Shown piece by piece: positions 8,561 to 61,791 of a DNA stretch of 64,000 nt. Source of the DNA: Microbacterium sp. KUDC0406 (GTDB lineage: Bacteria; Actinomycetota; Actinomycetes; Actinomycetales; Microbacteriaceae). Within the stretch, counting starts at the first letter, position 1, and each line of letters begins with the position of its first letter. The position numbers and the translations under genes were made by a program. The notes beneath the pieces are model-generated. The model was not told the origin of the DNA. It saw nothing but the letters and a program-made list of their open reading frames with translations, and searched no databases. The DNA lies in NCBI RefSeq assembly GCF_021582875.1, contig NZ_CP091138.1:2046001-2110000 (forward strand), given 5' to 3'.

Positions 8561-8609
8561 ATCAGGGACCGGAAAGCGCGAATCGATGGTCAGGAAGTTC
8601 ATCGAATGT

Positions 8610-8615: not shown

Positions 8616-8656
8616 AAAGGCACCTCACCCGATTCGTTCTTCCCCCGGTTTGGATC

Positions 8657-11938: not shown

Positions 11939-11948
11939 CCCGGTCGGA

Positions 11949-35160: not shown

Positions 35161-37451
<2,291 letters not shown>

Positions 37452-37500
37452 ACCGCCTATCTTGGCATCCGCCCAGACACTGCACAGGTAGTCTCGTGCC

Positions 37501-38523
37501 GTGCGCATTCTTCTGACCGGCGGTGCCGGCTACATCGGATCCCACGTCGCTCTCGTGCTGCTGCAGGCGGGTCACGATGTGCTGCTGGTCGACGACTTCT
37601 CGAACAGCAGCCGCGAATCCATCGACCGGGTGCAGGACCTCGCGTCGCGCACGATCGACGTCGTCGAATGCGATCTCGCGAACGCGGATGCCGCCCGTGC
37701 GGCGCTCAAGGGCCAGCAGTTCGACGCGGTCATCCACTTCGCCGGGCTGAAGGCCGTCGGCGAGTCGGTCGCGCTGCCCGCGAAGTACTACCGCACCAAC
37801 CTCAACTCCACCCTCAACGTGCTCGACATCATGCGCGAGAAGGGGGTGCGCAAGCTCGTGTTCAGCTCGTCGGCGACCGTGTACGGCACGCCTGCGGAGG
37901 GTGTCGAGCAGCTCGACGAGTCGCAGCCGGTCGGCCAGGGAATCACCAACCCGTATGGCTGGACGAAGGCGTTCAACGAGCAGATCATCCGCGACGTGCA
38001 GGTGGCCTGGCCCGAGTTCGAGGCCGTGCTGCTGCGCTACTTCAACCCGGTCGGGGCGCACCCGTCGGGCCGCATCGGCGAGGATCCGTCGGGCATCCCG
38101 AACAATCTCATGCCGTTCGTCGCGCAGGTGGCTGTGGGCCGCCGCGACCACCTGAACGTGTTCGGCGATCAGTACCCCACGCATGACGGCACCGGCGTGC
38201 GTGACTACATCCACGTGATGGATCTCGCCGAGGGCCACGTCGCCGCCCTCGAGCATCTGAAGGCCGGCGTCGAGACCTACAACCTCGGCTCGGGCGAGGG
38301 GCAGAGCGTGCTCGACGTGGTGAAGGCGTTCCGCGAGGCATCCGGTCGCGAGATCCCCTACGAGGTCGTCGCGCCGCGCGCGGGCGACCTGCCCACCACG
38401 ATCGCCGATCCGACGAAGGCGAACCGCGACCTGCAGTGGCGCACCACCCGCTCGCTCGCGGACGCCTGCCGCGACACCTGGAACTGGCAGTCGCAGAACC
38501 CGAACGGCTTCGCCGGGGAATGA
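37501..38523 (+). CDS. galE: UDP-glucose 4-epimerase
   Basis: Interconverts UDP-glucose and UDP-galactose (possibly also the GlcNAc forms). A 340-residue extended [46 protein letters not shown] and the catalytic Tyr-Lys in [30 protein letters not shown] and [22 protein letters not shown] blocks, diagnostic for GalE, follow. It starts with GTG. The TGA overlaps the ATG of the following VanZ gene. It supplies galactose donor for the surface glycan. Confidence 0.94.
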
Positions 38524-47435: not shown

Positions 47436-48560
47436 TCATTTTCCCCGGAGAAACCTACAAGCGCCTATTCTGAGTCGACGCAAACGGGCACGGGTCTCAT
47501 GACCGAACTCTTCGTCCTTCACCAGTTGGCTGTTGTGCACCATATCCTTGCTCGGCCAAATGAGACGGAAGAGTACCCGCACGCGATCCCTAGCACGTAT
47601 CCGTCCAACCGCTCTCAGATATTTACGCGGCCCCATTGGCATCTCTCGCAGATCCCAATGGGGCGGTTTTCCTGTCCTCGAAAGCTCGATGCGCGCATCA
47701 GGAAACACGTCCTGCAACACAGGGTTGAGCACGTAACCCGCTCCAAGAAGACCGGACGCTGCGATGGCGTCGGCACCTGCTGCACGAAGCGTCGAGACAG
47801 CGCTCGCCACCTTGGCCACGCTCGGAGGTAGACCGTCAGCGGGTCGCATCTCATGCAGCGCGAAAATCACAGCCCCAACTGGCCGGGACGGCGTGCGCAA
47901 ATCGTTTCCCGCAAAGGTCCGCCGTTCCGACGTAGCAAGCACTTGCTCGAATGCGATAACCGGGTCCAGGTTCATACCCGGGAACCGGGTATGAACGTCG
48001 ACAGCACATCCCCAGCCACCAGCGAACAGCGACAAGGAATGCGGAATATCGGTTCCCGTGAATGCCGAGTAGAACGGCCTCCACCCCCACGCCCGCATTG
48101 CCTCTGCGAGACGGATATCCTGCCCCGGCCGCACCCAACAGTCAACATCACCCGAATGCTCCCGGGACCTGAGGCCCTGCGCGTGCAGGATAGGCCCTTT
48201 GATGAACACGATGTCGATGTCGAGTCGGGCGGCCACGCGCGATAATAGGGCATAGACGAGCTCATGCTGTGGAGAACTCAGCCATGGGGCCGATGCAATG
48301 GCCGGCGCGATGCCTACTTCGGCTCTGCGGGCGAGCCCCATGTCTACAAGCCTCCCAAGATGATCCTGCTCTTCTTGGTTCAGGTCCGACCTGCTGCACG
48401 GCTCAACGGACAACCTTCGCCACAACCTTGCGCCGTCGCCCCAAAGCATCGAGGGGATGCCCGGCCGAATCGGGGTCGCAATCAGCTCATACCCATCGGC
48501 TGCGAGCCTGTGCTGTCTAAGGTCAAGCGCACCAAACGCGGCCGCAACCCAGAGCGTCAT
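47436..48560 (-). CDS. Uncharacterised nucleotidyltransferase (NTP_transf_5-like) with PqqD-like N-terminus
   Basis: A 374-residue protein. An N-terminal part of about 90 residues is PqqD/winged-helix-like (LIATPIRPGIPSMLWGDGARLWRRL). A nucleotidyltransferase-like core follows: IDIVFIKGPILHAQGLRSREHSGDVDCWVRPGQ near residue 120, with the Asp-x-Asp metal site in GDVDCW, and later AGGWGCAVDVHTRFPG. The C-terminus is basic. Proteins of this type occur in capsule and exopolysaccharide loci, often with HprK-like and PqqD-like partners, here at 41404-42782 on the other side of the accessory island. The biochemical reaction is unknown. It lies 7 bases after the polymerase gene and begins the tail end of that operon. 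Confidence 0.75.
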   Translation of the reverse strand: MTLWVAAAFGALDLRQHRLAADGYELIATPIRPGIPSMLWGDGARLWRRLSVEPCSRSDLNQEEQDHLGRLVDMGLARRAEVGIAPAIASAPWLSSPQHELVYALLSRVAARLDIDIVFIKGPILHAQGLRSREHSGDVDCWVRPGQDIRLAEAMRAWGWRPFYSAFTGTDIPHSLSLFAGGWGCAVDVHTRFPGMNLDPVIAFEQVLATSERRTFAGNDLRTPSRPVGAVIFALHEMRPADGLPPSVAKVASAVSTLRAAGADAIAASGLLGAGYVLNPVLQDVFPDARIELSRTGKPPHWDLREMPMGPRKYLRAVGRIRARDRVRVLFRLIWPSKDMVHNSQLVKDEEFGHETRARLRRLRIGACRFLRGK

Positions 48561-48567
48561 TTCAACT

Positions 48568-50049
48568 TCACGAATCAGATCGATTTTGCCGGGGCCTCAT
48601 CCGCGCGCCCCCCCGAACTCGCTTCTGTGGCCGTGACGATTCTAAGCGCGTGGATCGACGCGGACTCCACCCCCGTTTTGGCGCCAGCATTAGGAGTACG
48701 GCCATCGCTACGAGACCGTGAGAGAACATGGACGTCAGGATCGAGGTATTCGACAGCGCCACGGCCGGCATGACGACGACCAGCGAGGCAACCATTGATG
48801 GCAGCCCGTGCGCTGCGCGATCTAGGACACGAAGGAAGATCAACAGAATAACACCCGCCCCGAATACGCCAAACCATCCGAAATGCGCATACCCGTCGGC
48901 AAAGAGATTCGCATTCGCCGAGAGTTCGGAAGACCCCGAGACCCACAGCCCAATCATCCGCGCCGGACCGCGCGGATACGGGGGATTTTGAAAGAACGGC
49001 GCAAGAACGGAGTGAGACAACATCTCGAATGGCCCGTCACCATAGAAGGACACATATTGCTGCGAAAGTCGGGCAGGTGTAATCAGGAAGCGTCTCGCAA
49101 AAAGCGAGGACCACAATATCCCACCGCTCAGTTTATCCAGCGCTGCGGCGAAAAGAATCAGCCCCGACGCCCCCCACACAAGAGTCAGCGCACGCGGTCG
49201 AGGATTCATGCGAAACAACAATGCCATGATAAGCAAGGTCGGAATGCTAAACAAGACCGTCTTGAATCCCGTTCCCGAGTATATAACGAGCTGCCCGAGA
49301 ACCCCAATTGCAACGACGGACCAACGTTGAGAAATCAAACCTCTGCTAATGATGAGCGGATTGACGACATAAGCCTGCGTCGAAACAAGGTAACCTAGCA
49401 GACCTGCACCTGCGAGAATCTCCGCATAGTCTTCTCTTACATCGTAGACATCAAAGATCGACAGCAGAGTTAAATTCAGGCCCGCAACAAGTGCAAGATA
49501 TCCGTAAACAAGAGTCGAGAATGCAATAATAACAAGCCAGAATGTCGTGCCGCTCGGCCGCGCCATCAATGGACGCCGACCACCTCTTGCGCGCACGCCG
49601 AAACACGCGATCGCGAAGGCTGCAGCGAAGCCTGTTGACATTGCGACAGCGTCCCAAGCGTCAAGTATCCCTGCATAGGTGCTCATAAGGATGGTCGGCG
49701 CGATTGTGACCACGTAGAGCACCCAGAGAACCGTGCTAGAAGGCCGCGTAAGACGATGCGGCAGTACCCACGCAGTCAGTATCGCCAGAATAACCGTTAG
49801 CACAACCAACGAAAGAGGCGCTGGCACGTACCGCTGTCCGGCATATGCAAACGCTGGCTGAATTATTGATCGATAAGTCCAATGCAACGCTACTGCGTAC
49901 AAGACAACTGCAGCAGGGACCGTTACGACATTGCGAAAGAATAGCGAGACAAAGCGCTTCTCTCGCTCTACTCTATGAGATCGGAGTAAACGGCCGGGCA
50001 TGACACGAAGTTGAGGTGGCTGCGCTGCCCGATGATCAAGTGAGCTCAT
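48568..50049 (-). CDS. Wzy-like polysaccharide polymerase, base composition lower in GC
   Basis: A 493-residue protein with about 12 predicted helices and a large loop in the second half, the usual shape of Wzy/O-antigen polymerases, which are poorly conserved in sequence. No fixed motif can be claimed. Supporting blocks are VYDVREDYAEILAGAGLL, FKTVLFSIPTLLIM and SSELSANANLFADGYAHFGWFGVFGAG near residue 400. The last resembles the polymerase-loop motif seen in other Wzy proteins. The ATG at 50049 overlaps the stop of the flippase gene. The coding sequence is visibly richer in A/T (codons such as AAA, ATA, AAT) than its neighbours, a sign of acquisition from elsewhere. Confidence 0.7.
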   Translation of the reverse strand: MSSLDHRAAQPPQLRVMPGRLLRSHRVEREKRFVSLFFRNVVTVPAAVVLYAVALHWTYRSIIQPAFAYAGQRYVPAPLSLVVLTVILAILTAWVLPHRLTRPSSTVLWVLYVVTIAPTILMSTYAGILDAWDAVAMSTGFAAAFAIACFGVRARGGRRPLMARPSGTTFWLVIIAFSTLVYGYLALVAGLNLTLLSIFDVYDVREDYAEILAGAGLLGYLVSTQAYVVNPLIISRGLISQRWSVVAIGVLGQLVIYSGTGFKTVLFSIPTLLIMALLFRMNPRPRALTLVWGASGLILFAAALDKLSGGILWSSLFARRFLITPARLSQQYVSFYGDGPFEMLSHSVLAPFFQNPPYPRGPARMIGLWVSGSSELSANANLFADGYAHFGWFGVFGAGVILLIFLRVLDRAAHGLPSMVASLVVVMPAVALSNTSILTSMFSHGLVAMAVLLMLAPKRGWSPRRSTRLESSRPQKRVRGGARMRPRQNRSDS

Positions 50050-51320
50050 CTGCCTCCCCCTCGTCCTACATTCCTCTGATCCCGTGCTGTGGCCGCACGC
50101 AACACCAGAAGTAGCATGATCGCATAGCTGAGAACTTGGACCGTGGCCCAGCCAGCGAGTGCCCACCCCATGTCGAGATCCACGAGGCCCGCCCCCATGA
50201 TCGCACAGGCAGCTCCGACTGCCCTACTCACGTCCCACCAAAGTTGCTGCGCCTGCTGTTCAAGCAGAACGAGCCCTCTAGAGACGGGTACGACGATGAA
50301 CTGTGCCAGATAGGCCACGACCACGAGCTGCGCAAATACCCCAGAACCGGCCCACTGACTTCCGAACACCATCGAGAAGAGCCATGGTCCACAGATCATC
50401 ACTATGAGAGCAGGACCGACGCCGAGGAGCGTTTGTCGACTCACCAGGATGAGCACCATCTGCCGGAGTCCTGGCTGACGTTCCCGTAATCGGTGTGCGA
50501 AGGTGCTCTCGAAATGTTTGCTGACAGCGTCAACGATCATCCCCACCGGTGCCGCCAGCACACGCATCGTCAACGCGAAGAGTCCGGCCTCTGCTGCACC
50601 GTAAACCGCTATGAGCAGGAGCGACGGCAGTTGGAGCCCTATGGAGTTGACCATGCTTGACCAGGTGTTGATCAGAGGGAAGCGACGGTACCTGCGGGCG
50701 ACCTCACGCATTGACACCGCTTCGACCCTCGAGTCCGGCGGCGGGTCGGAGCGACGCGACCTGAGGCCGAGCCCAAACAATCCGGCAAATCGCCCGGCCG
50801 CCAGACTGGAGACGAGGCCGAACGGCGCCAGGCCGATCCATCCGAGGCCGACGCTCCACGCCGCTTGCGCAATCCCTTGCGCCGCGTTGCGCACCGCCAA
50901 GCCCGAGTAGTCCTGCCTACGTACAATCCACGCCGATACCAGTGCGTTTAGGCTCATCGCCACGAGGCTTACTGGAATCACCCACCAGAAGCTCTCTAAG
51001 ATCACCACGCCTGAGATTTCTGCGAGGATGTTGCGGCCGAAGTACATCACGACGGTGACAACTGAGATGACCACGACCATCGTCACGAGACCGAGCTTGA
51101 TGAGGACTCGCGCCTCCGCATCTTCCCGTGGAAGGACGACGGCCCTCTCCCAACTGAAGGTCGCGAGAGAGCTCAGCACCGCGCATACCGCTGTCACCAT
51201 CGCGAAGGCACCGAAGTCCGCTGGGGTGTACAGCCGGGACAGCACCGGGGAGACGAGTAGGACCGCGCCCTGACCGATCAGCGTCCCCAGCAGGATCTTC
51301 GAGACGGCGCCACGGAACAT
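50046..51320 (-). CDS. Oligosaccharide flippase (Wzx-like)
   Basis: A 424-residue protein with about 12 helices in the polysaccharide-transporter family. N-terminal signature SKILLGTLIGQGAVLLVSPVLSRLYTPADFGAFAMVTAV, then FSWERAVVLPREDAEA and MSLNALVSAWIVRRQDYSGL. A long helical C-terminal half follows. It moves lipid-linked repeat units of the second locus outward. The ATG at 51320 overlaps the TGA of the glycosyltransferase gene (TGATG); a start nine codons upstream is possible but lies in the other gene. This is the second flippase of the window and shares little with the one at 16049. Confidence 0.85.
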   Translation of the reverse strand: MFRGAVSKILLGTLIGQGAVLLVSPVLSRLYTPADFGAFAMVTAVCAVLSSLATFSWERAVVLPREDAEARVLIKLGLVTMVVVISVVTVVMYFGRNILAEISGVVILESFWWVIPVSLVAMSLNALVSAWIVRRQDYSGLAVRNAAQGIAQAAWSVGLGWIGLAPFGLVSSLAAGRFAGLFGLGLRSRRSDPPPDSRVEAVSMREVARRYRRFPLINTWSSMVNSIGLQLPSLLLIAVYGAAEAGLFALTMRVLAAPVGMIVDAVSKHFESTFAHRLRERQPGLRQMVLILVSRQTLLGVGPALIVMICGPWLFSMVFGSQWAGSGVFAQLVVVAYLAQFIVVPVSRGLVLLEQQAQQLWWDVSRAVGAACAIMGAGLVDLDMGWALAGWATVQVLSYAIMLLLVLRAATARDQRNVGRGGGR

Positions 51321-52437
51321 CACGATCGCCGCACTCCCCGATCGCACACCGCGTCGTAGGCCAGGACCAACTGCTGAGCCTCGCTCGCCCAGTTCAGCGA
51401 CTCAACGGCGGCGTGCCGCGCGTTGATGCTGTGCTCGGCGAGAAGGGCTGGGTCGTCCGCATAGCGCCGCACCGCCCGTGCGACGGCGGCCGGATCCCGC
51501 TCGTCCACCAGCTGCCCGCAACGGTGTCCATCCACGATACTCCGCCACAGAGTGAAGTCCGAGGCAATCACGGGTACACCCGCGGCGAAGTACTCGAACA
51601 TCTTCGTAGGGAGCGCGTCGACGTACGCCGGCGTCGCCTGCAAGACCGACAGTCCCACACGAGCGCGGAGCAGGAGCTCGCGTGCCGCCTGCGGAGGGAT
51701 CACTCCGAGGTACTCGACGCGCTCCCAACCGGGCTTCCTCTCCAGCCGCGCGAGGAGCGGCGGCGGCACGGCGCCCGCGAGCCGCAGCGTCCACCCCTCC
51801 GGCATGTCCGGATGCGCCATAGCCTCGACCATCACGTCGACGCCCCGCGCGGCACCGATCGCGCCGATGTACACCAGGTGCGGATCCCGGCGGCCGACGG
51901 GGACCGCCTCCGCCTCCTCTTCACGCAGCGGGGGAAGTTCCGCACGACGGTGGTCTTCGTGTCCGGGAACCTGGTCGCCACCTGCTCGGTCGCCGCGATG
52001 ACTGCCGTGCTGGTGCCCGCCACCGCGCACAGTGCCCTGGCCACCGCGGCCAGAACCGGCCGCGTTACGGCGTTCGCGTATGGCTTGTCCAGCACCTGCA
52101 CCGGCAGATCTTCATGGGCGTCGTATATCACGGCGCGGCCGACGGCGCGCAGCAACGGAATGGCCCAAATCAGTTCCGGGTCGTGCAGATGGAAGATCTG
52201 CGCACCGGTTTTCAGCGCCGCGACGATCGCCCGCGGCCCAGAGACCAGCACCCGCCACGCCCTTCGGAGCCGCGGGACGGTAATCACGCGCACCTGGCCA
52301 GACGGTGGCGCTTCCGCAGTGGCGACTGCGACGAGGGTAACATCGTAGCCAGCGCGTGCCAGGCTCACCGCCTCGCGGTAGTGGATGCGGTTGTCGCTCC
52401 ACGGGTGGGCCGACGAGACATGAACCACCCTGGTCAT
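51320..52437 (-). CDS. GT4 glycosyltransferase, frameshifted
   Basis: About 372 residues in GT-B fold. The N-terminal half starts MTRVVHVSSAHPWSDNRIHYREAVSLARAGYDVTLVAVA and has HLHDPELIWAIPLLRAVGR. The C-terminal half has PHLVYIGAIGAARGVDVMVEAM, RVEYLGVIPPQAARELLLRARVGLSVLQ, and a family E/K block ALPTKMFEYFAAGVPVIASDF. The frame breaks at 51930-51934, a run of five G: VVRNFP should continue as PLREEEAEAVPVG. One base is missing. The ATG overlaps the stop of the following fusion gene. The sugar is unknown. Confidence 0.84.
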
Positions 52438-54320
52438 GAGGCGATCAGCCGATCGAGCGACGCGGCGAGCTTCGACGCGAGGGTCTCATAGGAGTACTCC
52501 TCCAGTACATGCGCACGGGCGCGGCTGCCCATTTCCTCACGTTCCTCATCAGAGAGACGGGCGACATCGGCCATGGCTGCTGCAAGGGCCTCGATGTCGT
52601 CGGCGGGTACGGTGACACCTGCTCCAGCCTCGGTGACCGGATCGTTGAAAGCGCTGCTTCCTAGGATGACAGGCCGCGCGGCGAGCATGTAGTCGAACAA
52701 CTTGTTGAGGCTGATCCCGTAGCGGTAGATCGGCCGGTCGCGGAGGTTGGCAACGAGGCAGTCGGCATGTCGCGCGCGGTGGACGACTTCTGCCCGCGGG
52801 ATACGTTCCTCGAACTGGATACGCTCGCCGTGCGGCAGCTCCTGCGCCCATCGAATAAGCGACTCGCGCAGCGGCCCGCTCCCCACCAGGCGGAATCGGA
52901 GGTCAATCTCTGGCGCGATCTCGCAGGCACGGTCGAACGCCGCCAGCAACGAGTCGAGGGCATTCGCTCGCCCGTGCGCCCCCAGATACATGAACGTGAA
53001 TCGATCGGCGTCGGGACGCGCCGTTTCCGCGGTCCGGTCCGCCAGTGACGCGTCAGTACCGTTGGCGATCCAGAGGAACGGCGTCTCAACGCCGTTATCC
53101 GAGAGATAGCGGCCGACGCCCGGCAGCGGTGAGATCACCAGGGATGCTCGGCGCGCCAGCGAGAGGGACAGCGCCTTGATCGCTCGTGCCGACTGGCTGT
53201 CCTCGCGCAGCGCTCCCAGGTCTACCAGCGTCTCCGGCCAGATGTCCCTGATCTCGTAGATGAACGGCACCCGGTGGCGCCGTGCGAGCCGAGCGCCCGC
53301 CCAGGCGGCGAGCAGATGCACTGTGCTGCCCATGACGGCATCCGGCGCGTCGAGACCACGGGTAGCGCGAGGGAGCAGCAGATTGACGGTGAACGTGGCC
53401 ATCCCCGCTAAACGCGTCGCCCCGGAGCGATAGGAGTTCGACCACATCCAGAGGCGGTCGACGCCGTCGTCTTTGTCGCGCCGCAACCGCGCGGGGCGCG
53501 GGAAGATCTGCCGCCCGGACGGGTGCTGGGTCGACGCCGCGAGGATGGCGGTCCTCCAGCCGTGATCGACCAGGTGCCTGCCGAGCGCATGGTGACGGCC
53601 GCTGTTCCCGCTCGAAGACGGTGCCGAGGCATAGTGGTTCACAATCCACAGTCGGTGCGAGCCGGAGGCCTCAGGGGCGGTGCTGAAGTAGTGGTCGGGT
53701 AGGCCGCGCGTCACGCCAACATCGTCGATCTGCCGGAGGTCGTTGCCCATCGTCACATCGGAGGAGCGGAACAGCGCGACGACCGTCCGCCAAACGATGA
53801 TGAGGTCGAGGCGGAGCGAGACGTTCTCCACGTATTCGATGTCGAGGTCGAAGCGTCTACTGAAGGGCAGGCGGTTCCGCCCCGCAACCTGGGCGAGCCC
53901 GGTCACCCCCGGCCTAACGTCGTGCCTGCGGGCGTGATAAGGCGAGTAGTGCGGCAAGTACTCGGGGACGAGCGGACGAGGGCCGATCAGGCTCATCTCG
54001 CCGCGCACGATGTTCAACAGTTGCGGGAGCTCGTCGATCGACAGCTTGCGGATGGTCCTGCCGAGCGGGGTCAACCGGTCCTTGTCTACGAGCAGCCGAC
54101 CGTCGGGATGCCTCGCATTCGTCATCGTGCGGAACTTGAAGACGCGAAAGAGAACGCCGTCTTTTCCTGCCCTGGCATGGGTGAAGAACGGGTTGCCTCG
54201 GTTCTGGATCGCGAGAGCCACGGCTACGACGATGACGAGCGGTGACAGGAAGATGAGCGCGATCGTGGCGATCGCGCGGTCGGCGAACGGCTTCACCGCA
54301 TCCGAGTAGAAGGACATCAC
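52434..54320 (-). CDS. Phosphoglycosyltransferase fused to a GT4 glycosyltransferase
   Basis: A single 628-residue ORF. Residues 1-205 are a monotopic phosphoglycosyltransferase of the PglC type: re-entrant helix (ATIALIFLSPLVIVVAVALAI), ARAGKDGVLFRVFKFRTMTNA, IRKLSIDELPQLLNIVRGEMSLIGPRPLVPEYL and PGVTGLAQVAGRN. From about residue 225 a GT4 enzyme of the WbuB type follows: LWIVNHYASAPSSSGNSGRH, FIYEIRDIWPETLVDLG, FLWIANGTD and FTFMYLGAHGRANALDSLL, then YGISLNKLFDYMLAARPVI. The protein could place the first sugar-phosphate and then add the second sugar without releasing the intermediate. The ORF is continuous, with the junction in DHYFSTAPEASGSH. Start at 54320 (ATG ATG). Confidence 0.88.
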   Translation of the reverse strand: MMSFYSDAVKPFADRAIATIALIFLSPLVIVVAVALAIQNRGNPFFTHARAGKDGVLFRVFKFRTMTNARHPDGRLLVDKDRLTPLGRTIRKLSIDELPQLLNIVRGEMSLIGPRPLVPEYLPHYSPYHARRHDVRPGVTGLAQVAGRNRLPFSRRFDLDIEYVENVSLRLDLIIVWRTVVALFRSSDVTMGNDLRQIDDVGVTRGLPDHYFSTAPEASGSHRLWIVNHYASAPSSSGNSGRHHALGRHLVDHGWRTAILAASTQHPSGRQIFPRPARLRRDKDDGVDRLWMWSNSYRSGATRLAGMATFTVNLLLPRATRGLDAPDAVMGSTVHLLAAWAGARLARRHRVPFIYEIRDIWPETLVDLGALREDSQSARAIKALSLSLARRASLVISPLPGVGRYLSDNGVETPFLWIANGTDASLADRTAETARPDADRFTFMYLGAHGRANALDSLLAAFDRACEIAPEIDLRFRLVGSGPLRESLIRWAQELPHGERIQFEERIPRAEVVHRARHADCLVANLRDRPIYRYGISLNKLFDYMLAARPVILGSSAFNDPVTEAGAGVTVPADDIEALAAAMADVARLSDEEREEMGSRARAHVLEEYSYETLASKLAASLDRLIAS

Positions 54321-55402
54321 AGCACCGCCGCAAGTTCGTCGAAAGTCCGGTCGAGGGTAGCGACCATGAAGTCCCTGTAAGCGCGCAAGGCGGAAGGGTC
54401 ATCGCGCTCGACCATCAGCCTGTTCAGCACCGAGGGGATCGCGTCCACCGAACGGGCGAACATCTCGGTGCGCATCTGTAGCCCAAGCAGGTCTTGGAAC
54501 TTCGTCCCCGGCCACTTGTTGAAGATCGCCGCAGGGATTCCGTACGCCAGCGCTGTGATGGCCACGTGCAGGCTCGACGACATCACGATCGTCGCCCCGG
54601 CGACGATCCGGGTGATCTCGAGAGGCTCCAACTTCTCAGCGGGCATGGTGATCTCGCCGGCCGCGGCATCGACGATGGGTTGCATCGACGCGCGGTCATT
54701 CCAGAGATGTATGACGGGGAGCAGGATCACGTTCAGTCCCGTCATGCGGCGGAAGGTCCGCAGCATCTCCGCGATCCGCGCGCCCTCTTCCACGGTGATG
54801 TTGTGGAACTGGAAGACCGCATAGGGCGCTTCCTGCTCAGGCGCAGCTTCATCATTGAGCAAACGCGGGAACAGCCAGCCGAGATCCGGACTGACCCGAA
54901 TGCGGTCATCCATCTCGACGTACTCCCCGCCCTCCAAGATCTTCCGCGAAAGGATTCCCCGTACCGAAACGAAGTCCAGGCGGTCGAGCGTCGCAGCGAC
55001 TCGGGCGGGGTCGGTCTGGTCCTCGAACGGACGGACGCCGACCGAGAGCCACGCTTTGGTGCGCGCCGGAAGGTCGGACCAGTCCCACACGACATCGGAC
55101 GCCCGCCCCGAGGGCACCTCGACGCCGAGACGCTCATATATCGGCTGCCAGCTGCGGCGGTCGAAGAAGTGGACCACTTCCCCGCCGGCGAGGATGAGCG
55201 CGTCGTACCGGGCAGCGATCGCGTCCCGGTCGTAGTGGTGGTACAGATCCTCGCCGATTCGCGTGCTCGTCGGCGAGATGAAGTCCACGACCAAATCGTC
55301 GCGGCGCCGAAGGAGCTCACGGCGTACGACGTGCGAGAAGAGGATATCGCCATAGTTGTCGATATCCGCGAACGAGAAGACAGCGACGCGCGTCATCGTC
55401 AC
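54317..55402 (-). CDS. Polysaccharide pyruvyl transferase-family protein
   Basis: Adds a ketal-linked pyruvate from phosphoenolpyruvate to a sugar of the glycan, giving it negative charge. The 361-residue protein has VAVFSFADIDNYGDILFSHVVRRELLRR (Asn-Tyr-Gly-Asp family start), LILAGGEVVHFFD, DFVSVRGILSRKILEGG and PDLGWLFPRLLN. The C-terminal SSSLHVAITALAYGIPAAIFNK carries the conserved Ser-Ser-Leu-His-x-Ala. It starts with GTG, which overlaps the stop of the ATP-grasp gene. Typical CsaB/PssK-like length and order. The acceptor sugar is unknown. Confidence 0.87.
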   Translation of the reverse strand: MTMTRVAVFSFADIDNYGDILFSHVVRRELLRRRDDLVVDFISPTSTRIGEDLYHHYDRDAIAARYDALILAGGEVVHFFDRRSWQPIYERLGVEVPSGRASDVVWDWSDLPARTKAWLSVGVRPFEDQTDPARVAATLDRLDFVSVRGILSRKILEGGEYVEMDDRIRVSPDLGWLFPRLLNDEAAPEQEAPYAVFQFHNITVEEGARIAEMLRTFRRMTGLNVILLPVIHLWNDRASMQPIVDAAAGEITMPAEKLEPLEITRIVAGATIVMSSSLHVAITALAYGIPAAIFNKWPGTKFQDLLGLQMRTEMFARSVDAIPSVLNRLMVERDDPSALRAYRDFMVATLDRTFDELAAVL

Positions 55403-56703
55403 AGGGAATGCACCAGTCCTTCAACCGCATCTACGTCGAAGGTCGGAATGCCGGTGGCCTCGGCGACCTCGCGACGCTCTAGATACCAATTATCGATGAA
55501 AATCGAGTCCACCTCGGTGATGTAGTTCGACTTCTTCTCGTCCGCATCGAGGTGGACGATCTCGTCGAATAGCGCCGGATCCAGGTGGTGATCTCGCAGG
55601 ACGCCACGCGGGTCGACAACCGATTTCGTAATGAGTACCAGGCGCTTGCCGCGTGCCGCGGCGAGGTAAAGGAAGCGGACGAGATCCGCATTGACCGCGC
55701 CGCGCACGATCAGAGTGTCGTCCAGGTCGACGTACACGTGGTCGTACGTGAACGAGTAGCGGTAGTGATTGGTCGTCGATCGGAACATCTCGACCTGGAA
55801 CGGCGCAGGACGGATCTCCACCGGTCGGTCGAGCAGGTCGAAGATCGTCAGCAACGGGAGGTTTACGCCCAGGTGGCGGAAGAACCCGCCGGTGCCCGGA
55901 GCCCTGGTCGAGACCTCCAGCAGCTTCATCTTCCCGTCCGCGGCCTCCTTAATCTGGAACCACCACAGACCGCGCAGCGCCATCCGCTCATTGATTCGGT
56001 CGGCGATGGCCTGGATCTCCGTCGTCGTGGCCGTCTCCCGACTGCGGAACGAGATGCCCATTCGGATCTCCACGCGTTCGCGAGTCCCGGTGAACACCAG
56101 TCGGCCTCTCCGGTCGGTGAAGCACTCGACCGTGTACTCCTTTCCTGGGAGATACTCGAGCACGAGCATCCCCGGCTCCTTGCGCACCTCGTCAAGGTCG
56201 TGGCGATCCCGCACAACCCGTGTGCCCTTGCTGCCCTGGCCGACATCGGGCTTCGCGAAAAGCGGGAAGACCGGGGCCTGCTCTCCGGCATGGTGAACCT
56301 CGGGGCAGAATGGGTCATCGCGGAACAACTCGTAGGTGCGGGCCTTGTACCGGCAGATGAGATTCGTCCGCAGGTCGGCGTTCGGAACGCTCGCCGGAAT
56401 CTCGTCAGCGTGCTCGGCGAGGAACAGGGCGGCGGAGTCGTGCGTCGGGAAGACCACGTCGATGTCGTTCCGTCGGATCAGCTCGTCCAGCTGTTCTAGG
56501 AAGTCGGGTGCTTCCATCTCAGGGAGGGGCAGGATGGGCTGATCGTAGATCAGGGAGCTAATGTCGTCCCGGCTCGAAGCGGCCAGCGCATTGACGTGTA
56601 TCGAGTTGCGAATGGCGCGGTAGATCTCGAGTGCATTCTCCGCTCCCGCGGGGAAGATCAGGACGTTGATCCGCTTCCGATCGACAGCAGCATCAGTCGA
56701 CAT
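55399..56703 (-). CDS. ATP-grasp ligase fused to a HAD-like domain
   Basis: A 434-residue protein. Residues 1-300 carry an ATP-grasp fold with a carbamoyl-phosphate-synthase-like pattern: INVLIFPAGAENALEIYRAI, VVFPTHDSAALFLAEH, PLFAKPDVGQGSKGTRVV, MLVLEYLPGKEYTVECFTDRRG, and metal site LWWFQIKEAADGKMKLLEVSTRAPGTG (Glu, Asn replaced by Ser). From about residue 330 a HAD-like domain starts, HVYVDLDDTLIVRG with the catalytic Asp-x-Asp, then VLITKS and DSIFIDNWYLERREV. ATP-grasp enzymes activate a carboxylate as acyl phosphate and join it to an amine or thiol. In this cluster a modification of the glycan or of a lipid intermediate is likely. It sits between the pyruvyltransferase and a FemAB-like gene. 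Confidence 0.82.
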   Translation of the reverse strand: MSTDAAVDRKRINVLIFPAGAENALEIYRAIRNSIHVNALAASSRDDISSLIYDQPILPLPEMEAPDFLEQLDELIRRNDIDVVFPTHDSAALFLAEHADEIPASVPNADLRTNLICRYKARTYELFRDDPFCPEVHHAGEQAPVFPLFAKPDVGQGSKGTRVVRDRHDLDEVRKEPGMLVLEYLPGKEYTVECFTDRRGRLVFTGTRERVEIRMGISFRSRETATTTEIQAIADRINERMALRGLWWFQIKEAADGKMKLLEVSTRAPGTGGFFRHLGVNLPLLTIFDLLDRPVEIRPAPFQVEMFRSTTNHYRYSFTYDHVYVDLDDTLIVRGAVNADLVRFLYLAAARGKRLVLITKSVVDPRGVLRDHHLDPALFDEIVHLDADEKKSNYITEVDSIFIDNWYLERREVAEATGIPTFDVDAVEGLVHSL

Positions 56704-56749
56704 GTCGTGTGTTCCGCACCTTTCAATTCGTGGAGCCGTTCGGCTCACC
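56704..56749. other. 46-base gap between the FemAB-like and ATP-grasp genes
   Basis: The only gap in the 54317-59921 run. Contains GAAAGGTGCGGAACACACGAC before the ATG at 56703 on the minus strand, with GAAAGG as possible ribosome binding site. Nothing else is seen. Confidence 0.4.
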
Positions 56750-57763
56750 TCAGACGGTAGCCCGGTACGCGGGGAAAAAAGCCCCGCGCTCCAGTTCCGC
56801 CGGGTCCGCTCCGATCTCCGCAGCGTGCCGGTAGGTGAGCTCTCGATAGCGGTCGGCGTGGAGCACAGCCTTGCCCACGTGGAAGGGCGTCTCCATGCCT
56901 CCGAAGGACGCCTTGAAGCGGTGCAGCGAGTCCCCGGGGGCCAGGCCACCGCCGAGGTGGAGACTACTTATCCCGTGGTCGGCCGCCCACTCCATCGTCG
57001 CCCAGATCATGAGGTTGTTCGCACCGGACTCGGTGCCAGTAGACCCGGACAGGTGGTAGTGCGCGTGCTGGTCGTCCCGGAGGATGAAGCTCGCCGCGAC
57101 CACCCGCCCGCTGGCATCCCGGACTCGCGCGACGACGATGCGGTCGCCGAGCTGCTGGAGCTTTGCGTAGTACCCGTCGGGGAAGAAGTAGCGGTCAGCC
57201 GCACCGACCCGGCGCATCGTCTGCTCATACAGCTCGCGCGTCCCGTGCAGAACCTGCTCGTCGATGGTGACGATCTCCGCCCGGCATCCGTTCCGCTCCG
57301 CCGCACGAACGGCGGTGCGGCCCCGCTTATGCAGCGCGGCCCACATGGATTCAGCATCGCCGAGGGGGACCACGAAGGTGTACGAGGCTTCGGAGATCTC
57401 GAGGCCCGGCAGCCCGAAGAGCCGCTCCGCCTGCTCCGGGAGGAACGGCGGGAACCGCAGGAACAATGACACGAACCCCGCTTCCGACAGCGTCGCGCGC
57501 GTCTGTTCCCAGAGGCCGGCCACCGACTGGAAGTCGAGGTTGTCGGCGATCTCGAGGCCGCCGTAGCCGTACGGCGTCGACGCGTCCCGCAGCTCCGCGC
57601 CAGGGATCTCGCGCGCGATGAGCGGGAGGGACCAAACACCGCCGTCGGCCCGCACCTCGAACCACGCGCCGCCATCCGCAGTAGCGACGGCCTGCCCGTA
57701 TTCCTCGGATGCATACATCCGAGCTGCGGGCACGGTCTGAGCCGTCTCGAGACGGACCGTCAT
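56750..57763 (-). CDS. FemAB/GNAT-type aminoacyl- or acyltransferase
   Basis: A 337-residue double-GNAT-fold protein of the FemAB/BioF-like group: SLFLRFPPFLPEQAERLFGL, YTFVVPLGDAESMWAALHKRGRTAVRAAERNGCRAEIV with the family Arg/Lys-rich helix near residue 145. YEQTMRRVGAADRYFFPDGYYAKLQQL and GRVVAASFILRDDQHAHYHLSGSTGTESGANNLMIWATMEWA follow, then LHLGGGLAPGDSLHRFKASFGG. Known members move amino acids from aminoacyl-tRNA to peptidoglycan, or transfer acyl groups to sugars or lipids. Next to an ATP-grasp ligase, a transfer step on an activated small molecule is plausible. The ATG overlaps the stop of the DegT-like gene. Confidence 0.8.
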   Translation of the reverse strand: MTVRLETAQTVPAARMYASEEYGQAVATADGGAWFEVRADGGVWSLPLIAREIPGAELRDASTPYGYGGLEIADNLDFQSVAGLWEQTRATLSEAGFVSLFLRFPPFLPEQAERLFGLPGLEISEASYTFVVPLGDAESMWAALHKRGRTAVRAAERNGCRAEIVTIDEQVLHGTRELYEQTMRRVGAADRYFFPDGYYAKLQQLGDRIVVARVRDASGRVVAASFILRDDQHAHYHLSGSTGTESGANNLMIWATMEWAADHGISSLHLGGGLAPGDSLHRFKASFGGMETPFHVGKAVLHADRYRELTYRHAAEIGADPAELERGAFFPAYRATV

Positions 57764-58791
57764 GCGAGCACCTCCGTCAGGGCAGCGCCGACGCGCTCCA
57801 TGTCGGCCGTGTCGTACCGATGATCCACCGGCACCGATAGCAATTCCCGCGGCCACGGCACGTCGCGCATACGCTCCGGCCTCGGCCAGTGCATCGGGCA
57901 GAAGATCTCTTGTCTCGCGAGCTCCGACTGTACGTACCGGGCGTCCTCCACGTGGATTACAACGTGCGAGGGCAGATCCGCTGTGGAGACGATCCGTAGT
58001 CGATCGTTTCGGGACAAAACGCTCCGTAGCACCTGCGCATTGTCCCGGCGTCGTGACCGCAGGCGCTCGTAGTCGAGCACTGCGATCGTCTGCATCGTGC
58101 GTCCGCTCGCGCGCACCGGCGCCAGACCGTCCGTCGCCTCGAGCACCTCTTCCGCCTCCGAAAACACCGACCGCGCCTCCGTGAAGGAGCCGACCCGCTT
58201 CAGATCCATTGCCTCCCAACCACGATGGGCGCGGTAGCCGAGCTCGATCTCCCGCGGCAGGCCTCGAAGGTAGGCACCGTCCGCTACTGGTAACACCTTG
58301 CGCAGACTGGCCATGGCATAGTCGCCCAGCGGTCGCAGCGCGCCGAGGACCCGGTGCGTCTCATCCTCGATCACGCGGATACCGCGCGCCTGCAGTCCGC
58401 GTACCGCGGCGACATGCGTCACATCGGGCTCGGCTCCGAAGTAGGCGATCGTCAGCGCCGCCGTGCGAGCGGGATCGACGGCGTCCGCGACCCGCAGCAG
58501 GTCGTTGGCCGCGATTTCGAGGGGCTCCGCGACGTCGTAGGTGCGCAGAGTCCACCGGTTGGCAGGGAACGCGGCGATCATGCTCTCACACAGGAACGCG
58601 GGCACAAGGAGCGTGTCCCGCCTTTCGTGCTCCAAGACCGCGGCCAGCGCGGCGAGTGCCTGCCTCCCGGTCTGGACGTACTGAATAGGCCCGGCATGCG
58701 CCCAGGGCGGCGGCGACGTCGTGTCGCGCAGCAGTTCCGGCGCGCTCTCGAAGAACGAGCCGATGGGACGGCAGGATCCGGTGGCCCTCAT
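57760..58791 (-). CDS. DegT-fold PLP-dependent protein, divergent
   Basis: A 343-residue protein with the aminotransferase fold but few usual family blocks. FFESAPELLRDTTSPPPWAHAGPIQYVQTGRQALAALAAVLEHERRDTLLVPAFLCESMIAAF takes the place of the GT-G-xxA motif. TAALTIAYFGAEPDVTHVAAV is followed by GIRVIEDETHRVLGAL with the cofactor Asp (IEDE), and YAMASLRKVLPVADGAYL has the probable lysine (SLRK). The C-terminal domain is present (CPMHWPRPERMRDVPWPREL). The lack of several substrate-contact residues leaves the substrate open: an amino-sugar nucleotide or a different amine. Both ends overlap neighbouring genes (ATGA). Confidence 0.72.
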   Translation of the reverse strand: MRATGSCRPIGSFFESAPELLRDTTSPPPWAHAGPIQYVQTGRQALAALAAVLEHERRDTLLVPAFLCESMIAAFPANRWTLRTYDVAEPLEIAANDLLRVADAVDPARTAALTIAYFGAEPDVTHVAAVRGLQARGIRVIEDETHRVLGALRPLGDYAMASLRKVLPVADGAYLRGLPREIELGYRAHRGWEAMDLKRVGSFTEARSVFSEAEEVLEATDGLAPVRASGRTMQTIAVLDYERLRSRRRDNAQVLRSVLSRNDRLRIVSTADLPSHVVIHVEDARYVQSELARQEIFCPMHWPRPERMRDVPWPRELLSVPVDHRYDTADMERVGAALTEVLA

Positions 58792-59921
58792 CGCCCCGCC
58801 AAGAACGCCGCGATCGCGTCCACCACACGCTCCCGCTGCTCCGCAGTCAACGCCGACCCGCTTGGCAGCGTCAGCCCCCGCTCGAACAGCGTCTCCGACG
58901 CCCCCGATATCTCGCCCCGGTACCCGGCAAACACCGGCTGCAGGTGCATCGGCTTCCACACCGGGCGACTCTCGATGTTGTCCTCCGCCAGCGCCGCGGC
59001 CAGCTGCGAAGGCTCCCACCCGGTCACCGACGAGTCGACCAGGATCGACGTCAGCCACACGTTGTCGTGCTCGTCGCCCTCGGCGCCGAACACCTCGACA
59101 CCGTCGACATCGGCGAACAGCTGCTTGTACAGCTCGCGCATCTCGCGGCGACGCGCGATCATCTCGTCGAGCCTGGCCAGCTGAGCACGACCCAGCGCCG
59201 CGAGCAGGTTGCTCATGCGGTAGTTGTAACCGACGTCCGCGTGCTCGTAGTGCACCACCGGCTGACGGGCCTGCGTCGCCAGATACCGCACGCGCTGCGC
59301 GAGGTCGGCATCATCCGTCAACAGCATCCCGCCGCCCGACGTGGTCATCACCTTGTTGCCGTTGAACGACACGACCGACGCACGGCCGAAGCTGCCGGCG
59401 GCGCGGCCGGCATGCGTCGCGCCCAGCGACTCCGCAGCATCCGCCAGCACCGGCACGTCGAACTCGTCGGCGATCTCGAGAATGCGGGTGTAGTCGACGG
59501 TCTTGCCGAGCAGATCGACCGGCACGATCGCACCGACGTGCTCACCGAGGTCGCGCAGCACCTCCAGTGCCTCACGCAGCAGCATCGGATCCATGTTGCC
59601 GGTCACCGGATCGGCGTCGATGAAGAACGGCTCGGCACCGGTGTACATGATCGCGTTCGTCGTCGCGGCGAACGTCATGGTCGACGTGACCACCACGTCT
59701 CCGGGCTTCACACCCAGCACCAGCAGACCGAGGTGCAGCGCCGCGGTGCCGGAGCTCAGCGCGACACCATGCGCGACGCCCACCCGCTCGGCGAGCTCGC
59801 TCTCGAACGCGTCGACATCCGGTCCCAGCGGGGCGATCCACCCCGAGCGCATCGCTGCGACCACGGCGTCCTCTTCGGCCTGCGTGACGTCGGGCGAGGA
59901 CATGTAGATGCGCTCAGCCAT
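58788..59921 (-). CDS. DegT/DnrJ/EryC1/StrS aminotransferase (PglE-like)
   Basis: Transaminates a UDP-4-keto-6-deoxy-N-acetylhexosamine. A 377-residue protein: RIYMSSPDVTQAEEDAVVAAMRSGWIAPLGPDVDAFESELAE, ALSSGTAALHLGLLVLGVKPGDVVVTSTMTFAATTNAI and PVLADAAESLGATHAG with the Asp. SVVSFNGNKVMTTSGGGMLL has the Lys (near residue 185). SFNGNK with TTSGGGM is the PglE/LegC/PseC-like 4-aminotransferase pattern. Together with the CapD/PglF-type dehydratase it would make UDP-2-acetamido-4-amino-2,4,6-trideoxyhexose, the donor for a PglC-type phosphoglycosyltransferase such as 52434-54320. Its ATG overlaps the dehydratase stop. Confidence 0.88.
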   Translation of the reverse strand: MAERIYMSSPDVTQAEEDAVVAAMRSGWIAPLGPDVDAFESELAERVGVAHGVALSSGTAALHLGLLVLGVKPGDVVVTSTMTFAATTNAIMYTGAEPFFIDADPVTGNMDPMLLREALEVLRDLGEHVGAIVPVDLLGKTVDYTRILEIADEFDVPVLADAAESLGATHAGRAAGSFGRASVVSFNGNKVMTTSGGGMLLTDDADLAQRVRYLATQARQPVVHYEHADVGYNYRMSNLLAALGRAQLARLDEMIARRREMRELYKQLFADVDGVEVFGAEGDEHDNVWLTSILVDSSVTGWEPSQLAAALAEDNIESRPVWKPMHLQPVFAGYRGEISGASETLFERGLTLPSGSALTAEQRERVVDAIAAFLAGR

Positions 59922-61791
59922 TCGTCCGCGGCTCCAGGTTCAGCGGTTCGATCAACGTCGTGTCATTGTTGCGAGGCGATTGTTCCATCCTCGCCTTCCA
60001 GCCCGCCTTGTCCAGCCGCTCGGGCGTGATCACATCGGCCCGGGTGTGCGCGATCTTCGGGTGGAACGGCCGCTCCAGGTTCTCCCGCGAGCCGACGAGC
60101 TCTTCATGCAGCTTCTCGCCGTGCCGCAGGCCGGTGAACACGATGTCGATGTTCTTGCCCGACATCGAGATCATGCGCTTGGCCACCTCGAGAATCGACA
60201 CCGGCTCGCCCATGTCGAGGATCAGCACCTCGCCGGGCCGCCCGATGCCGCCGGCCTGGATCACCAGCTGGCACGCCTCGGGGATCGTCATGAAGTATCG
60301 GGTCGCTTCCGGGTGCGTCACCGTGATCGGCCGCTCCTCGGCGATCAGCCGCTGGAACGTCGGCAGCATCGAACCGCGGCTGCCGATCACGTTGCCGAAG
60401 CGCACCGAGACGAAGTTCATGCCGGTCTGCTCACCCGCCCACGCGGTGAGCTTCTCGGCCACCCGCTTCGAGTGGCCCAGCACACTGGTGGGGTTCGCAG
60501 CCTTGTCGGTCGAGATGTTCACGAAGTGGGTCACGCCCACGTGCATCGCCGCGCGGATCACGTTCAGCGACCCCAGCACGTTCGTCTTCCACGCCTCGTC
60601 GGGGTACTGCTCCAGCATCGGCAGGTGCTTGAGCGCCGCGGCGTGGAACACCACCTCGGGGCGGCGCTGCTCGAAGAGGCGGGTCAGCGTCTCGGGCTCG
60701 CGGATGTTGGCCAGCACGACGTCGTTCGTGTCGAGCAGGCCGTGGCCGGCCGTGCCCAGCTGCGCGATCTGCAGCCCGGTCTCATCACGGTCGAGCATGA
60801 TCAGCTCGGCGGGCCCGAACTTCGACAGCTGACGGCACAGCTCCGAGCCGATCGATCCGCCCGCGCCGGTGACCAGCACGCGCTTGCCGGTGACGTACCC
60901 GGCGATCAGCTCGACGTTGGTGTCGACAGGATGCCGGCCGATGAGATCTTCGATCTCGATGTCGCGCACGTCGACCTTGGCCTTCTCGCCCGTCATGAAC
61001 TCCGTCAGCGACGGCGTCACCGCCACGCGGAGTCCCGCCCGCGCGGCCTCGTCGCTGAGCCGGCGCAGCAGCACGCTGTCGGCGTTGCCGATCGCGATGA
61101 TCAGCAGAGACGCGCGCGTCCTGCGCGCCGCATCCTGGATCTGGCCGGTGCTCCCCACGACCGGCACCCCGCGCAGGCGCAGATGCTTCTTCGCCGGGTC
61201 GTCATCGAGCAGGCCCACCGGCTTGATCGGCGATGTCGGGTCGGTGATCACGGTGTGCAGCAGCCGGTCGCCCAGGTAGCCGGCGCCCACGATCAGCGCG
61301 GGCTCCGCTTCTGCAGCGGGCTTGCGCGAGTTCTCCAGCGCGAGACGCGCGATGTAGCGCACCCCGAACATCACGATCAGCACGAACGGCGCCGCGAGCA
61401 GCACGGTGCCGCGTGGGATGTCCATGGCGATGCCGAGGGGGATGACAACCAGCGAGAGCAGCAGAGTCTCCACGAGCACGATCAGCCCGAGCGCACGCAC
61501 CTCTTCGAACGAGCCGTACGGGTACCGCCCGCGATACAGAGCGAGGAACACGCCGACGCCCACCTGGATCGCCCCGGCCGCGACGCCCAGCACGATCATC
61601 CACAGCCACGTGGTCGGCGTGGGCGTGAACTCGAAGCGCAGCGCGACGGCGAACACGATGCCGAACAGCCACGCCAGCCCGTCGATCAGCGCCACCGCAA
61701 CGCGACGCCGCTGCTGCTGCACGGGGATGCCCCAGGGCAGCCCTTCTTCCGAGGCGTCTGCTTGCGCGCGCGCACGACTGTTTGAGTTCAT
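59914..61791 (-). CDS. Membrane-bound UDP-GlcNAc 4,6-dehydratase (PglF/CapD/WbpM-type)
   Basis: A 625-residue protein. Four membrane helices at the N-terminus (about residues 30-140) precede a first Rossmann-like domain (ALIVGAGYLGDRLLHTV, GVPVVGSTGQIQDA). The SDR catalytic domain follows: KRVLVTGAGGSIGSELCRQL near residue 310, HAAALKHLPMLEQYP, FVNISTDKAANPTSVLGHSKRVAEKL (the TDK/SK active site of this group replacing Tyr), RFGNVIGSRGSMLPTF and LHEELVG. It removes water from UDP-N-acetylglucosamine to give the 4-keto-6-deoxy sugar. Its stop overlaps the ATG of the PglE-like gene. Length and architecture match PglF. Confidence 0.92.
   Translation of the reverse strand: MNSNSRARAQADASEEGLPWGIPVQQQRRRVAVALIDGLAWLFGIVFAVALRFEFTPTPTTWLWMIVLGVAAGAIQVGVGVFLALYRGRYPYGSFEEVRALGLIVLVETLLLSLVVIPLGIAMDIPRGTVLLAAPFVLIVMFGVRYIARLALENSRKPAAEAEPALIVGAGYLGDRLLHTVITDPTSPIKPVGLLDDDPAKKHLRLRGVPVVGSTGQIQDAARRTRASLLIIAIGNADSVLLRRLSDEAARAGLRVAVTPSLTEFMTGEKAKVDVRDIEIEDLIGRHPVDTNVELIAGYVTGKRVLVTGAGGSIGSELCRQLSKFGPAELIMLDRDETGLQIAQLGTAGHGLLDTNDVVLANIREPETLTRLFEQRRPEVVFHAAALKHLPMLEQYPDEAWKTNVLGSLNVIRAAMHVGVTHFVNISTDKAANPTSVLGHSKRVAEKLTAWAGEQTGMNFVSVRFGNVIGSRGSMLPTFQRLIAEERPITVTHPEATRYFMTIPEACQLVIQAGGIGRPGEVLILDMGEPVSILEVAKRMISMSGKNIDIVFTGLRHGEKLHEELVGSRENLERPFHPKIAHTRADVITPERLDKAGWKARMEQSPRNNDTTLIEPLNLEPRTNG

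What the first reader, a model, noticed from the sequence alone, without database searches (positions are those of the whole stretch)
54317..58791. Four-gene decoration module: pyruvyltransferase, ATP-grasp/HAD, FemAB-like and divergent DegT
The genes are almost contiguous with 4-base overlaps (one gap of 46 bases). A pyruvyltransferase is an established glycan decorator. An ATP-grasp ligase next to a FemAB-type transferase suggests that a carboxylate (for instance an amino acid) is activated and placed on a sugar or lipid carrier. The divergent DegT-like protein could make the amine acceptor or the small-molecule donor. I know of no described system with this exact set. This is the strongest candidate for a previously undescribed activity in the window.
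Basis: inference. Interest (0 to 1): 0.75.

Follow-up and report, generated by a model that had tools for sequence, protein, structure and literature searches.

The report
Amino-acid-on-sugar operon for surface glycan
The four genes lie inside a surface-sugar operon and most likely put amino acids, one of them taken from a charged transfer RNA, onto an amino sugar; relatives of two of the genes sit side by side in very different bacteria.

Summary
They are the middle of a longer overlapping operon with a UDP-GlcNAc 4,6-dehydratase and LegC/PglE-like aminotransferase upstream and a priming sugar transferase downstream. They form two conserved pairs. (1) A divergent DegT (no Pfam match, aminotransferase fold) with FemAB: in 59 of 79 readable DegT loci a FemAB gene lies within two genes. 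The FemAB model's best Foldseek match is an aminoacyl-tRNA-dependent enzyme solved with an amino-sugar compound; in Z it ties with FemX, whose reactive lysine is conserved in 40 of 40 aligned sequences. (2) ATP-grasp/HAD with the pyruvyltransferase: 23 of 61 pyruvyltransferase relatives share an exact contig length with an ATP-grasp/HAD relative. Best explanation: a sugar amine is aminoacylated from tRNA by FemAB and extended with a second acid by the ATP-grasp. The closest described system is the Clostridium difficile type B flagellin locus (FemAB, ATP-grasp, FdtB-like DegT), whose product is a peptidylamido sugar. New variant of a known kind; the divergent DegT's substrate is unknown and no chemistry is shown.

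The parts
59914..61791 (-). PglF/CapD-like UDP-GlcNAc 4,6-dehydratase, first gene of the sugar part of the operon
   Evidence: Polysacc_synt_2 E 5.4e-103; PseB model 166 bits, below its cut-off; overlaps the next gene by 8 bases
58788..59921 (-). DegT1: canonical PglE/LegC-like sugar aminotransferase
   Evidence: DegT_DnrJ_EryC1 E 7.9e-101; LegC family 358 bits, cut-off 420
57760..58791 (-). DegT2: divergent PLP aminotransferase-fold protein, no Pfam or NCBIfam match
56750..57763 (-). FemAB-like double-GNAT protein, predicted aminoacyl-tRNA-dependent aminoacyltransferase
55399..56703 (-). ATP-grasp carboxylate-amine ligase fused to a C-terminal HAD phosphatase-like domain
   Evidence: ATPgrasp_Ter 67.7 bits, cut-off 29.1; PylC-like; HAD motif residues
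54317..55402 (-). Polysaccharide pyruvyltransferase family protein, partner of ATP-grasp/HAD
   Evidence: PS_pyruv_trans E 1.3e-18; contig co-location inferred from lengths
52434..54320 (-). PglC-type priming sugar-phosphate transferase fused to a GT4 glycosyltransferase
   Evidence: Bac_transf E 3e-55 and Glycos_transf_1; 4-base overlap with the pyruvyltransferase gene
50046..51347 (-). Wzx-type flippase
   Evidence: Polysacc_synt_3 E 9.5e-22
48568..50166 (-). Wzy-like membrane protein (assigned by position and by eye, no Pfam match)
   Evidence: open frame; no family at E 0.001

Best explanation
The operon builds a surface polysaccharide repeat that carries an amino sugar with an amide-linked amino-acid (peptidylamido) substituent. 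Steps and their standing: (a) the dehydratase and DegT1 make a UDP-linked 4-amino-6-deoxy sugar (inferred from the named families PglF and PglE/LegC); (b) DegT2, a divergent PLP enzyme, makes or processes a sugar amine in the same pathway (inferred from fold, conserved residues and linkage to DegT1); (c) the FemAB-like protein transfers an amino acid from aminoacyl-tRNA to a sugar amine (inferred from fold, conserved lysine and solved relatives that bind an amino-sugar compound); (d) the ATP-grasp/HAD protein ligates a second carboxylic acid, most likely onto that aminoacyl group, with the HAD domain removing a phosphate from the acid or the product (inferred); (e) the pyruvyltransferase-family protein finishes the same residue or a neighbouring one (inferred, weakest); (f) PglC-GT4, flippase and Wzy-like proteins prime, export and polymerise (inferred from families and position). 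Shown by computation here: the gene order, the two recurring pairs, folds and motif conservation. No step has been shown chemically.
Against: 20 of 79 DegT2 loci have no FemAB within two genes. DegT2 distances track DegT1 (rho 0.68) more than FemAB (0.53, the same as DegT1 with FemAB) in the 33 loci that have DegT2, FemAB, DegT1 and PglC, so DegT2 may serve DegT1 rather than FemAB. No gene for a second ketone for DegT2 was recognised in the operon. The profile comparison of DegT2 with DegT1 is weak (probability 1.5, E 0.033). In the C. difficile locus the aminotransferase is described as FdtB-like; whether a DegT2 exists there was not examined. P0002's best Pfam match is an acetyltransferase domain. 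Nothing tells which amino acid is used.
Confidence: 0.5

Rival explanations
1. The ATP-grasp/HAD enzyme takes the place of the PglD/PseH-type N-acetyltransferase and acylates the 4-amine made by DegT1; FemAB and DegT2 act on a different amine or sugar.
For: In 64 loci where the stretch between PglC or DegT1 and DegT2 could be read, it holds an ATP-grasp only in 15, a GNAT or hexapeptide acetyltransferase only in 17, both in 1, neither in 31 (one-sided Fisher p 0.021). Among the operon genes scanned no hexapeptide or small GNAT acetyltransferase was found besides P0002's Acetyltransf_6 match.
Against: Loci are related, so the p-value is optimistic. The same mutual exclusion is expected if both enzymes cap the aminoacyl group that FemAB places. 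In the window the ATP-grasp gene follows FemAB, not PglC.
Confidence: 0.35
2. The four genes are two unrelated pairs brought together: DegT2-FemAB modifies one sugar, and ATP-grasp/HAD with the pyruvyltransferase makes a separate substituent.
For: 23 pyruvyltransferase relatives are inferred to share a contig with an ATP-grasp/HAD relative, and 22 of those 23 contig lengths do not occur in the listed DegT2 relatives (lists are capped). In the 80 fetched DegT2-type loci the pyruvyltransferase profile found only three distant ORFs, the best at 8.5e-9 in L056.
Against: ATP-grasp/HAD also occurs directly before DegT2-FemAB in L036, L042, L060 and L065, where that profile found no pyruvyltransferase, and near a DegT2-like ORF in Cupriavidus (L106). 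In the window the genes are in one overlapping operon.
Confidence: 0.3
3. P0002 is an ordinary acyl-CoA-dependent GNAT that acetylates an amino sugar; the DegT2-FemAB pair is a normal aminotransferase-acetyltransferase pair.
For: The best Pfam match is Acetyltransf_6 (40 of 40 relatives); many sugar aminotransferase genes sit beside CoA-dependent acyltransferases (general knowledge).
Against: Fold and profile matches are to aminoacyl-tRNA-dependent enzymes, well above CoA-type GNATs; the FemX lysine is conserved; many of the loci also carry a separate GNAT.
Confidence: 0.12
4. P0002 builds a peptidoglycan interpeptide bridge, as FemA and FemX do.
For: By Z the closest folds include FemX and FemA; 35 of 40 aligned relatives match the NCBIfam FemX model at E 0.001; a search with these rows found no second copy in the host genome.
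Against: P0002 itself is not hit by the FemX model at E 0.1; its DegT2 partner is rare among relatives (4 of 396 genomes of the order at E 1e-15, own included) while peptidoglycan genes are core; PglC is within six genes in 57 of 79 loci.
Confidence: 0.05

Closest known systems
Clostridium difficile type B flagellin peptidylamido-glycan locus (CDR20291_0244-0247)
   Same: FemAB-superfamily protein, ATP-grasp ligase and DegT-type (FdtB-like) aminotransferase together in one glycan locus; product an amino sugar acylated by a short peptide (PMC5207246 passages; PMC5207245 abstract, passages and Discussion)
   Different: There an FdtB-like aminotransferase, an ornithine cyclodeaminase-type gene and flagellin as target; here a divergent DegT2 beside a LegC/PglE-like DegT1, a HAD domain, a pyruvyltransferase-family gene and a Wzx/Wzy-type operon
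Sba18/Sbb17 and Orf11 (BD-12) aminoacyl-tRNA-dependent aminoacyltransferases
   Same: Best Foldseek matches of the P0002 model are Sba18/Sbb17; double GNAT; Orf11 aminoacylates streptothrisamine (review PMC12945691, passages)
   Different: 18-20% identity in the structural alignments; antibiotic pathways, not surface polysaccharide
FemX/FemA peptidoglycan aminoacyltransferases
   Different: P0002 not hit by the NCBIfam FemX model; neighbours are sugar-nucleotide and polysaccharide genes
PglF-PglE-PglC bacillosamine pathway and the LegB-LegC legionaminic acid pathway
   Same: First steps and primer enzyme in the window; DegT2-FemAB also lies inside a cluster with LegC, NeuB and NeuC (L077)
   Different: No PglD/PseH-type acetyltransferase recognised in the window operon; DegT2 and FemAB added
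CsaB-type polysaccharide pyruvyltransferases
   Same: PF04230 family membership
   Different: Far below the CsaB equivalog cut-off (36.6 against 213.1 bits); its close relatives are inferred to travel with ATP-grasp/HAD

Membership tests
FemABX aminoacyl-tRNA-dependent transferases | Double-GNAT FemX fold | tested here: met
FemABX aminoacyl-tRNA-dependent transferases | Reactive lysine (FemX K305) | tested here: met
   K284, 40 of 40 aligned sequences; column matched to K305 by counting on the alignment
FemABX aminoacyl-tRNA-dependent transferases | Use of aminoacyl-tRNA as donor | not testable with these tools
   needs assay
Peptidoglycan FemX (NCBIfam NF047883) | Match to the curated model | tested here: not met
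   P0002 not listed at E 0.1; 35 of 40 aligned relatives match it at E 0.001, cut-off not shown there
XrtA/PEP-CTERM FemAB (TIGR03019) | Score above the equivalog cut-off | tested here: not met
   42.5 against 260.35 bits
DegT/DnrJ/EryC1/StrS aminotransferases | Pfam PF01041 match | tested here: not met
   P0001 no family at E 0.1; 4 of 35 aligned sequences match at E 0.01
DegT/DnrJ/EryC1/StrS aminotransferases | Fold of sugar aminotransferases | tested here: met
DegT/DnrJ/EryC1/StrS aminotransferases | PLP lysine and aspartate | tested here: inconclusive
   K165 and D143 in 35 of 35, but their match to the DegT1 motif rests on the weak alignment
ATP-grasp carboxylate-amine ligases | Pfam ATP-grasp domain above cut-off | tested here: met
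   ATPgrasp_Ter 67.7 against 29.1 bits
HAD phosphatases | DxD(x)T, T/S, K, D motifs | tested here: met
   D326, D328, T330, K391, D404 in 33 of 33 aligned sequences, T359 in 32 of 33; no Pfam HAD call for P0003
Polysaccharide pyruvyltransferases | PF04230 above cut-off | tested here: met
   68.3 against 25.3 bits
Polysaccharide pyruvyltransferases | Pyruvyl ketal formation | not testable with these tools
   needs assay or glycan NMR
C. difficile type B peptidylamido-glycan system | FemAB, ATP-grasp and DegT-type aminotransferase together | tested here: met
   families of the C. difficile genes from PMC5207246
C. difficile type B peptidylamido-glycan system | Ornithine cyclodeaminase-type gene in the locus | tested here: not met
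   none among the operon genes scanned, 48568-61791
PglF-PglE-PglD-PglC pathway | PglD-type acetyltransferase in the operon | tested here: not met
   no hexapeptide or small GNAT gene among the operon genes scanned

The most novel reading that the evidence does not exclude
DegT2 and its FemAB partner are a widespread, undescribed cassette for tRNA-dependent aminoacylation of sugars in surface polysaccharides and nonulosonic acids, in Actinomycetota, Bacillota, Bacteroidota and others; a variable neighbouring slot (GNAT, ATP-grasp with opine or transporter genes, deacetylase, sulfotransferase) then caps the amino acid. DegT2 would be a new aminotransferase clade with its own substrate.
Probability: 0.45. 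Interest if true: 0.75.

Novelty: new variant of a known kind. Interest (0 to 1): 0.56.

Why it matters
If right, charged tRNAs feed the chemistry of many bacterial surface glycans, and annotation now hides it: on the Priestia plasmid the pair is called 'hypothetical protein' and 'GNAT family N-acetyltransferase'. It would let peptidylamido sugars, defined chemically in a C. difficile flagellin glycan, be predicted from sequence across phyla, and would give a function to a PLP-enzyme clade whose window member has no Pfam or NCBIfam match.

Tried and rejected
Rejected: peptidoglycan bridge enzyme. Rejected as the main reading: simple CoA acetyltransferase. Rejected: a stand-alone four-gene module.

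Led nowhere or inconclusive: hhalign of DegT2 against DegT1. The mirror-distance test did not single out FemAB as DegT2's partner; DegT2 with PglC gave rho 0.35 and DegT1 with PglC 0.44. The fold search does not separate possible DegT2 substrates (rows tied). Pyruvyltransferase relatives: none on plasmids at E 1e-20, no viral contig with one exact DNA pattern, 1 of 247 genomes of the genus at E 1e-40, the own one, though the protein list holds one from a named Microbacterium strain (P0187). The PF02388 search of the own genome found nothing although P0002 matches that family, so that search is insensitive. Phylum draw: 14 of 396 matched, 5 of them over nearly the whole profile including the own genome. 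Order draw: 4 of 396 at E 1e-15, own included. In these draws only 5 to 7 first-look candidates per genome were scored, so misses are possible. Class of G318: 5 of 36 at E 1e-15. ATP-grasp/HAD in a phylum draw: 2 of 296 at E 1e-60, own included. Paper searches with all terms required: FemAB, ATP-grasp, pyruvyltransferase and polysaccharide; legionaminic acid, FemAB and aminotransferase; ATP-grasp and bacillosamine; pyruvyl transferase, ATP-grasp, gene cluster and polysaccharide biosynthesis; FemAB, ATP-grasp, aminotransferase and glycan: no paper each. Other searches were seen as listings. Only open-licence PMC text is held, and the C. difficile paper was missed, so these absences are weak. 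tRNA and Rfam scans of the window were empty. Dropped before the count: L004 (DegT1 and DegT2 in one frame), leaving 79 of 80 loci; 237 loci encoded a relative and the tool kept the best 80. In one search, 118 of the 120 listed ATP-grasp/HAD rows were used (self and one without contig length left out), and that list was cut at 120 of 1661. Papers: PMC5207245 outline with abstract, passages and Discussion; PMC5207246, PMC12945691, PMC2674064 and PMC11339370 passages only.
Full report
Observation. The finding's four genes exist as described, at 54317-58791 on the minus strand, with junctions of 4 bases overlap, 46 bases gap and 4 bases overlap. They belong to a longer run: dehydratase (59914-61791), DegT1 (58788-59921), DegT2 (57760-58791), FemAB (56750-57763), ATP-grasp/HAD (55399-56703), pyruvyltransferase (54317-55402), PglC-GT4 (52434-54320), then a glycosyltransferase split by a frame break, a flippase and a Wzy-like gene.

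DegT2 and FemAB travel together. A genome-collection scan found 237 loci with a DegT2 relative; the best 80 were kept, by record title mostly Actinomycetota, Bacillota and Bacteroidota. In 79 of these (L004 dropped) FemAB is adjacent in 51 and within two genes in 59; PglC is within six genes in 57 and DegT1 in 53; 62 of 69 FemAB-family ORFs are within two genes of a DegT2. Where FemAB is missing (20), an ATP-grasp gene is adjacent in 8. In a draw of 396 genomes of the phylum the four near-full-length matches other than the own one (L089 to L092, all from one unnamed family) all show DegT2-FemAB, and so does a Priestia megaterium plasmid. At L089 (wider stretch L113) the ATP-grasp is fused to PglC, and a HAD protein is a separate gene before DegT2.

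A variable slot. In 64 loci the stretch between PglC or DegT1 and DegT2 could be read: ATP-grasp only 15, acetyltransferase only 17, both 1, neither 31, of which 20 are empty (one-sided Fisher p 0.021; loci are related, so this is indicative). Single loci carry beside the ATP-grasp an octopine dehydrogenase-type gene (L043, L059), an ornithine cyclodeaminase-type gene (L063), or glutamate, citrate or solute symporters (L047, L033, L079); others have a hexapeptide transferase with PIG-L deacetylase (L068; by profile also L066, L069) or a sulfotransferase (L019). Four Bacillota loci (L036, L042, L060, L065) carry ATP-grasp/HAD in this slot. L077 holds the pair in a cluster with a dehydratase, LegC, NeuB and NeuC; L057 has a methyltransferase-like gene between DegT2 and FemAB.

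Second pair. Among 61 relatives of the pyruvyltransferase, 23 have exactly the contig length of one of 118 listed ATP-grasp/HAD relatives; ten small shifts of the lengths give 0 or 1. A shared 2,914-base contig would leave about 520 bases beside two genes for proteins of 428 and 367 residues. Named sources on shared lengths include a Sphingobacterium and Rufibacter immobilis. One 26,322-base contig carries relatives of DegT2, ATP-grasp/HAD and pyruvyltransferase; a 17,762-base one DegT2 and ATP-grasp/HAD, a 13,840-base one DegT2 and pyruvyltransferase. This is co-location inferred from lengths; the contigs themselves could not be read. In the 80 fetched DegT2-type loci the pyruvyltransferase profile finds only three distant ORFs (L056 8.5e-9, L031 3e-4, L009 1.2e-3).

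Comparison. The Clostridium difficile type B flagellin locus has a FemAB-superfamily protein, an ATP-grasp protein, an ornithine cyclodeaminase-type protein and an FdtB-like aminotransferase; mutants of the second and third lose the terminal peptidylamido sugar, while mutants of the FemAB and FdtB-like genes could not be made (PMC5207246, passages). The product is Fuc3N acylated by glycine, then alanine and taurine; the authors propose the FemAB gene product as acylator of the amine and the ATP-grasp and cyclodeaminase-type products for the peptidyl part (PMC5207245). The tRNA donor and the transfer of this scheme to the window are my inference. Locus L063 (ATP-grasp, cyclodeaminase-type gene, DegT2, FemAB) resembles it in composition. 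So the kind is known; DegT2, the HAD domain, the pyruvyltransferase partner and the polysaccharide setting make it a variant.

Weak points. The ketone or substrate for DegT2 is unknown; DegT2 distances follow DegT1 more than FemAB (rho 0.68 against 0.53); a quarter of its loci lack a nearby FemAB; all function is inferred. The cassette is rare near the window's strain (DegT2 over the whole profile in 2 of 299 genomes of the family, own included; pyruvyltransferase in 1 of 247 of the genus, the own one), which fits an accessory, transferable surface-glycan locus; few candidates per genome were scored, so misses are possible.

Noticed in passing
window 51320-52437 (-): A glycosyltransferase of the operon is split over two overlapping frames (51832-52437 and 51320-52030), each with half of a GT4-type enzyme: a frame break, real or from sequencing.
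   Followed up: partly
L124-L141 (viral contigs): IMG/VR contigs encode ATP-grasp/HAD relatives of P0003; in L130, L135 and L137 a short protein with only the N-terminal part of a DegT aminotransferase lies just upstream, and methyltransferase genes are next to or near it in L130, L137 and L124.
   Followed up: partly
L106 about 7604-13272: Cupriavidus metallidurans megaplasmid carries a DegT1-like gene, a DegT2-like ORF without Pfam match, PhyH and methyltransferase genes and ATP-grasp/HAD, with no FemAB found by profile.
   Followed up: partly
window 47436-48560 and 41853-42782 (-): A protein weakly like NTP_transf_5 (below cut-off) and a protein with a weak AAA match (below cut-off) lie near the operon; the second looks HPr-kinase-like to me from memory.
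   Followed up: partly
window 33775-38523: dTDP-rhamnose-type genes (RmlC/D-like fusion, RmlB-like, RmlA-like) and a GalE-like gene by eye; a possible source of dTDP-4-keto-6-deoxyglucose for DegT2 (family searches not run).
   Followed up: no
L120 about 7996-11193: A DegT2 relative sits between an Acetyltransf_6 protein and a YdjC-like protein, another arrangement of the same theme.
   Followed up: no
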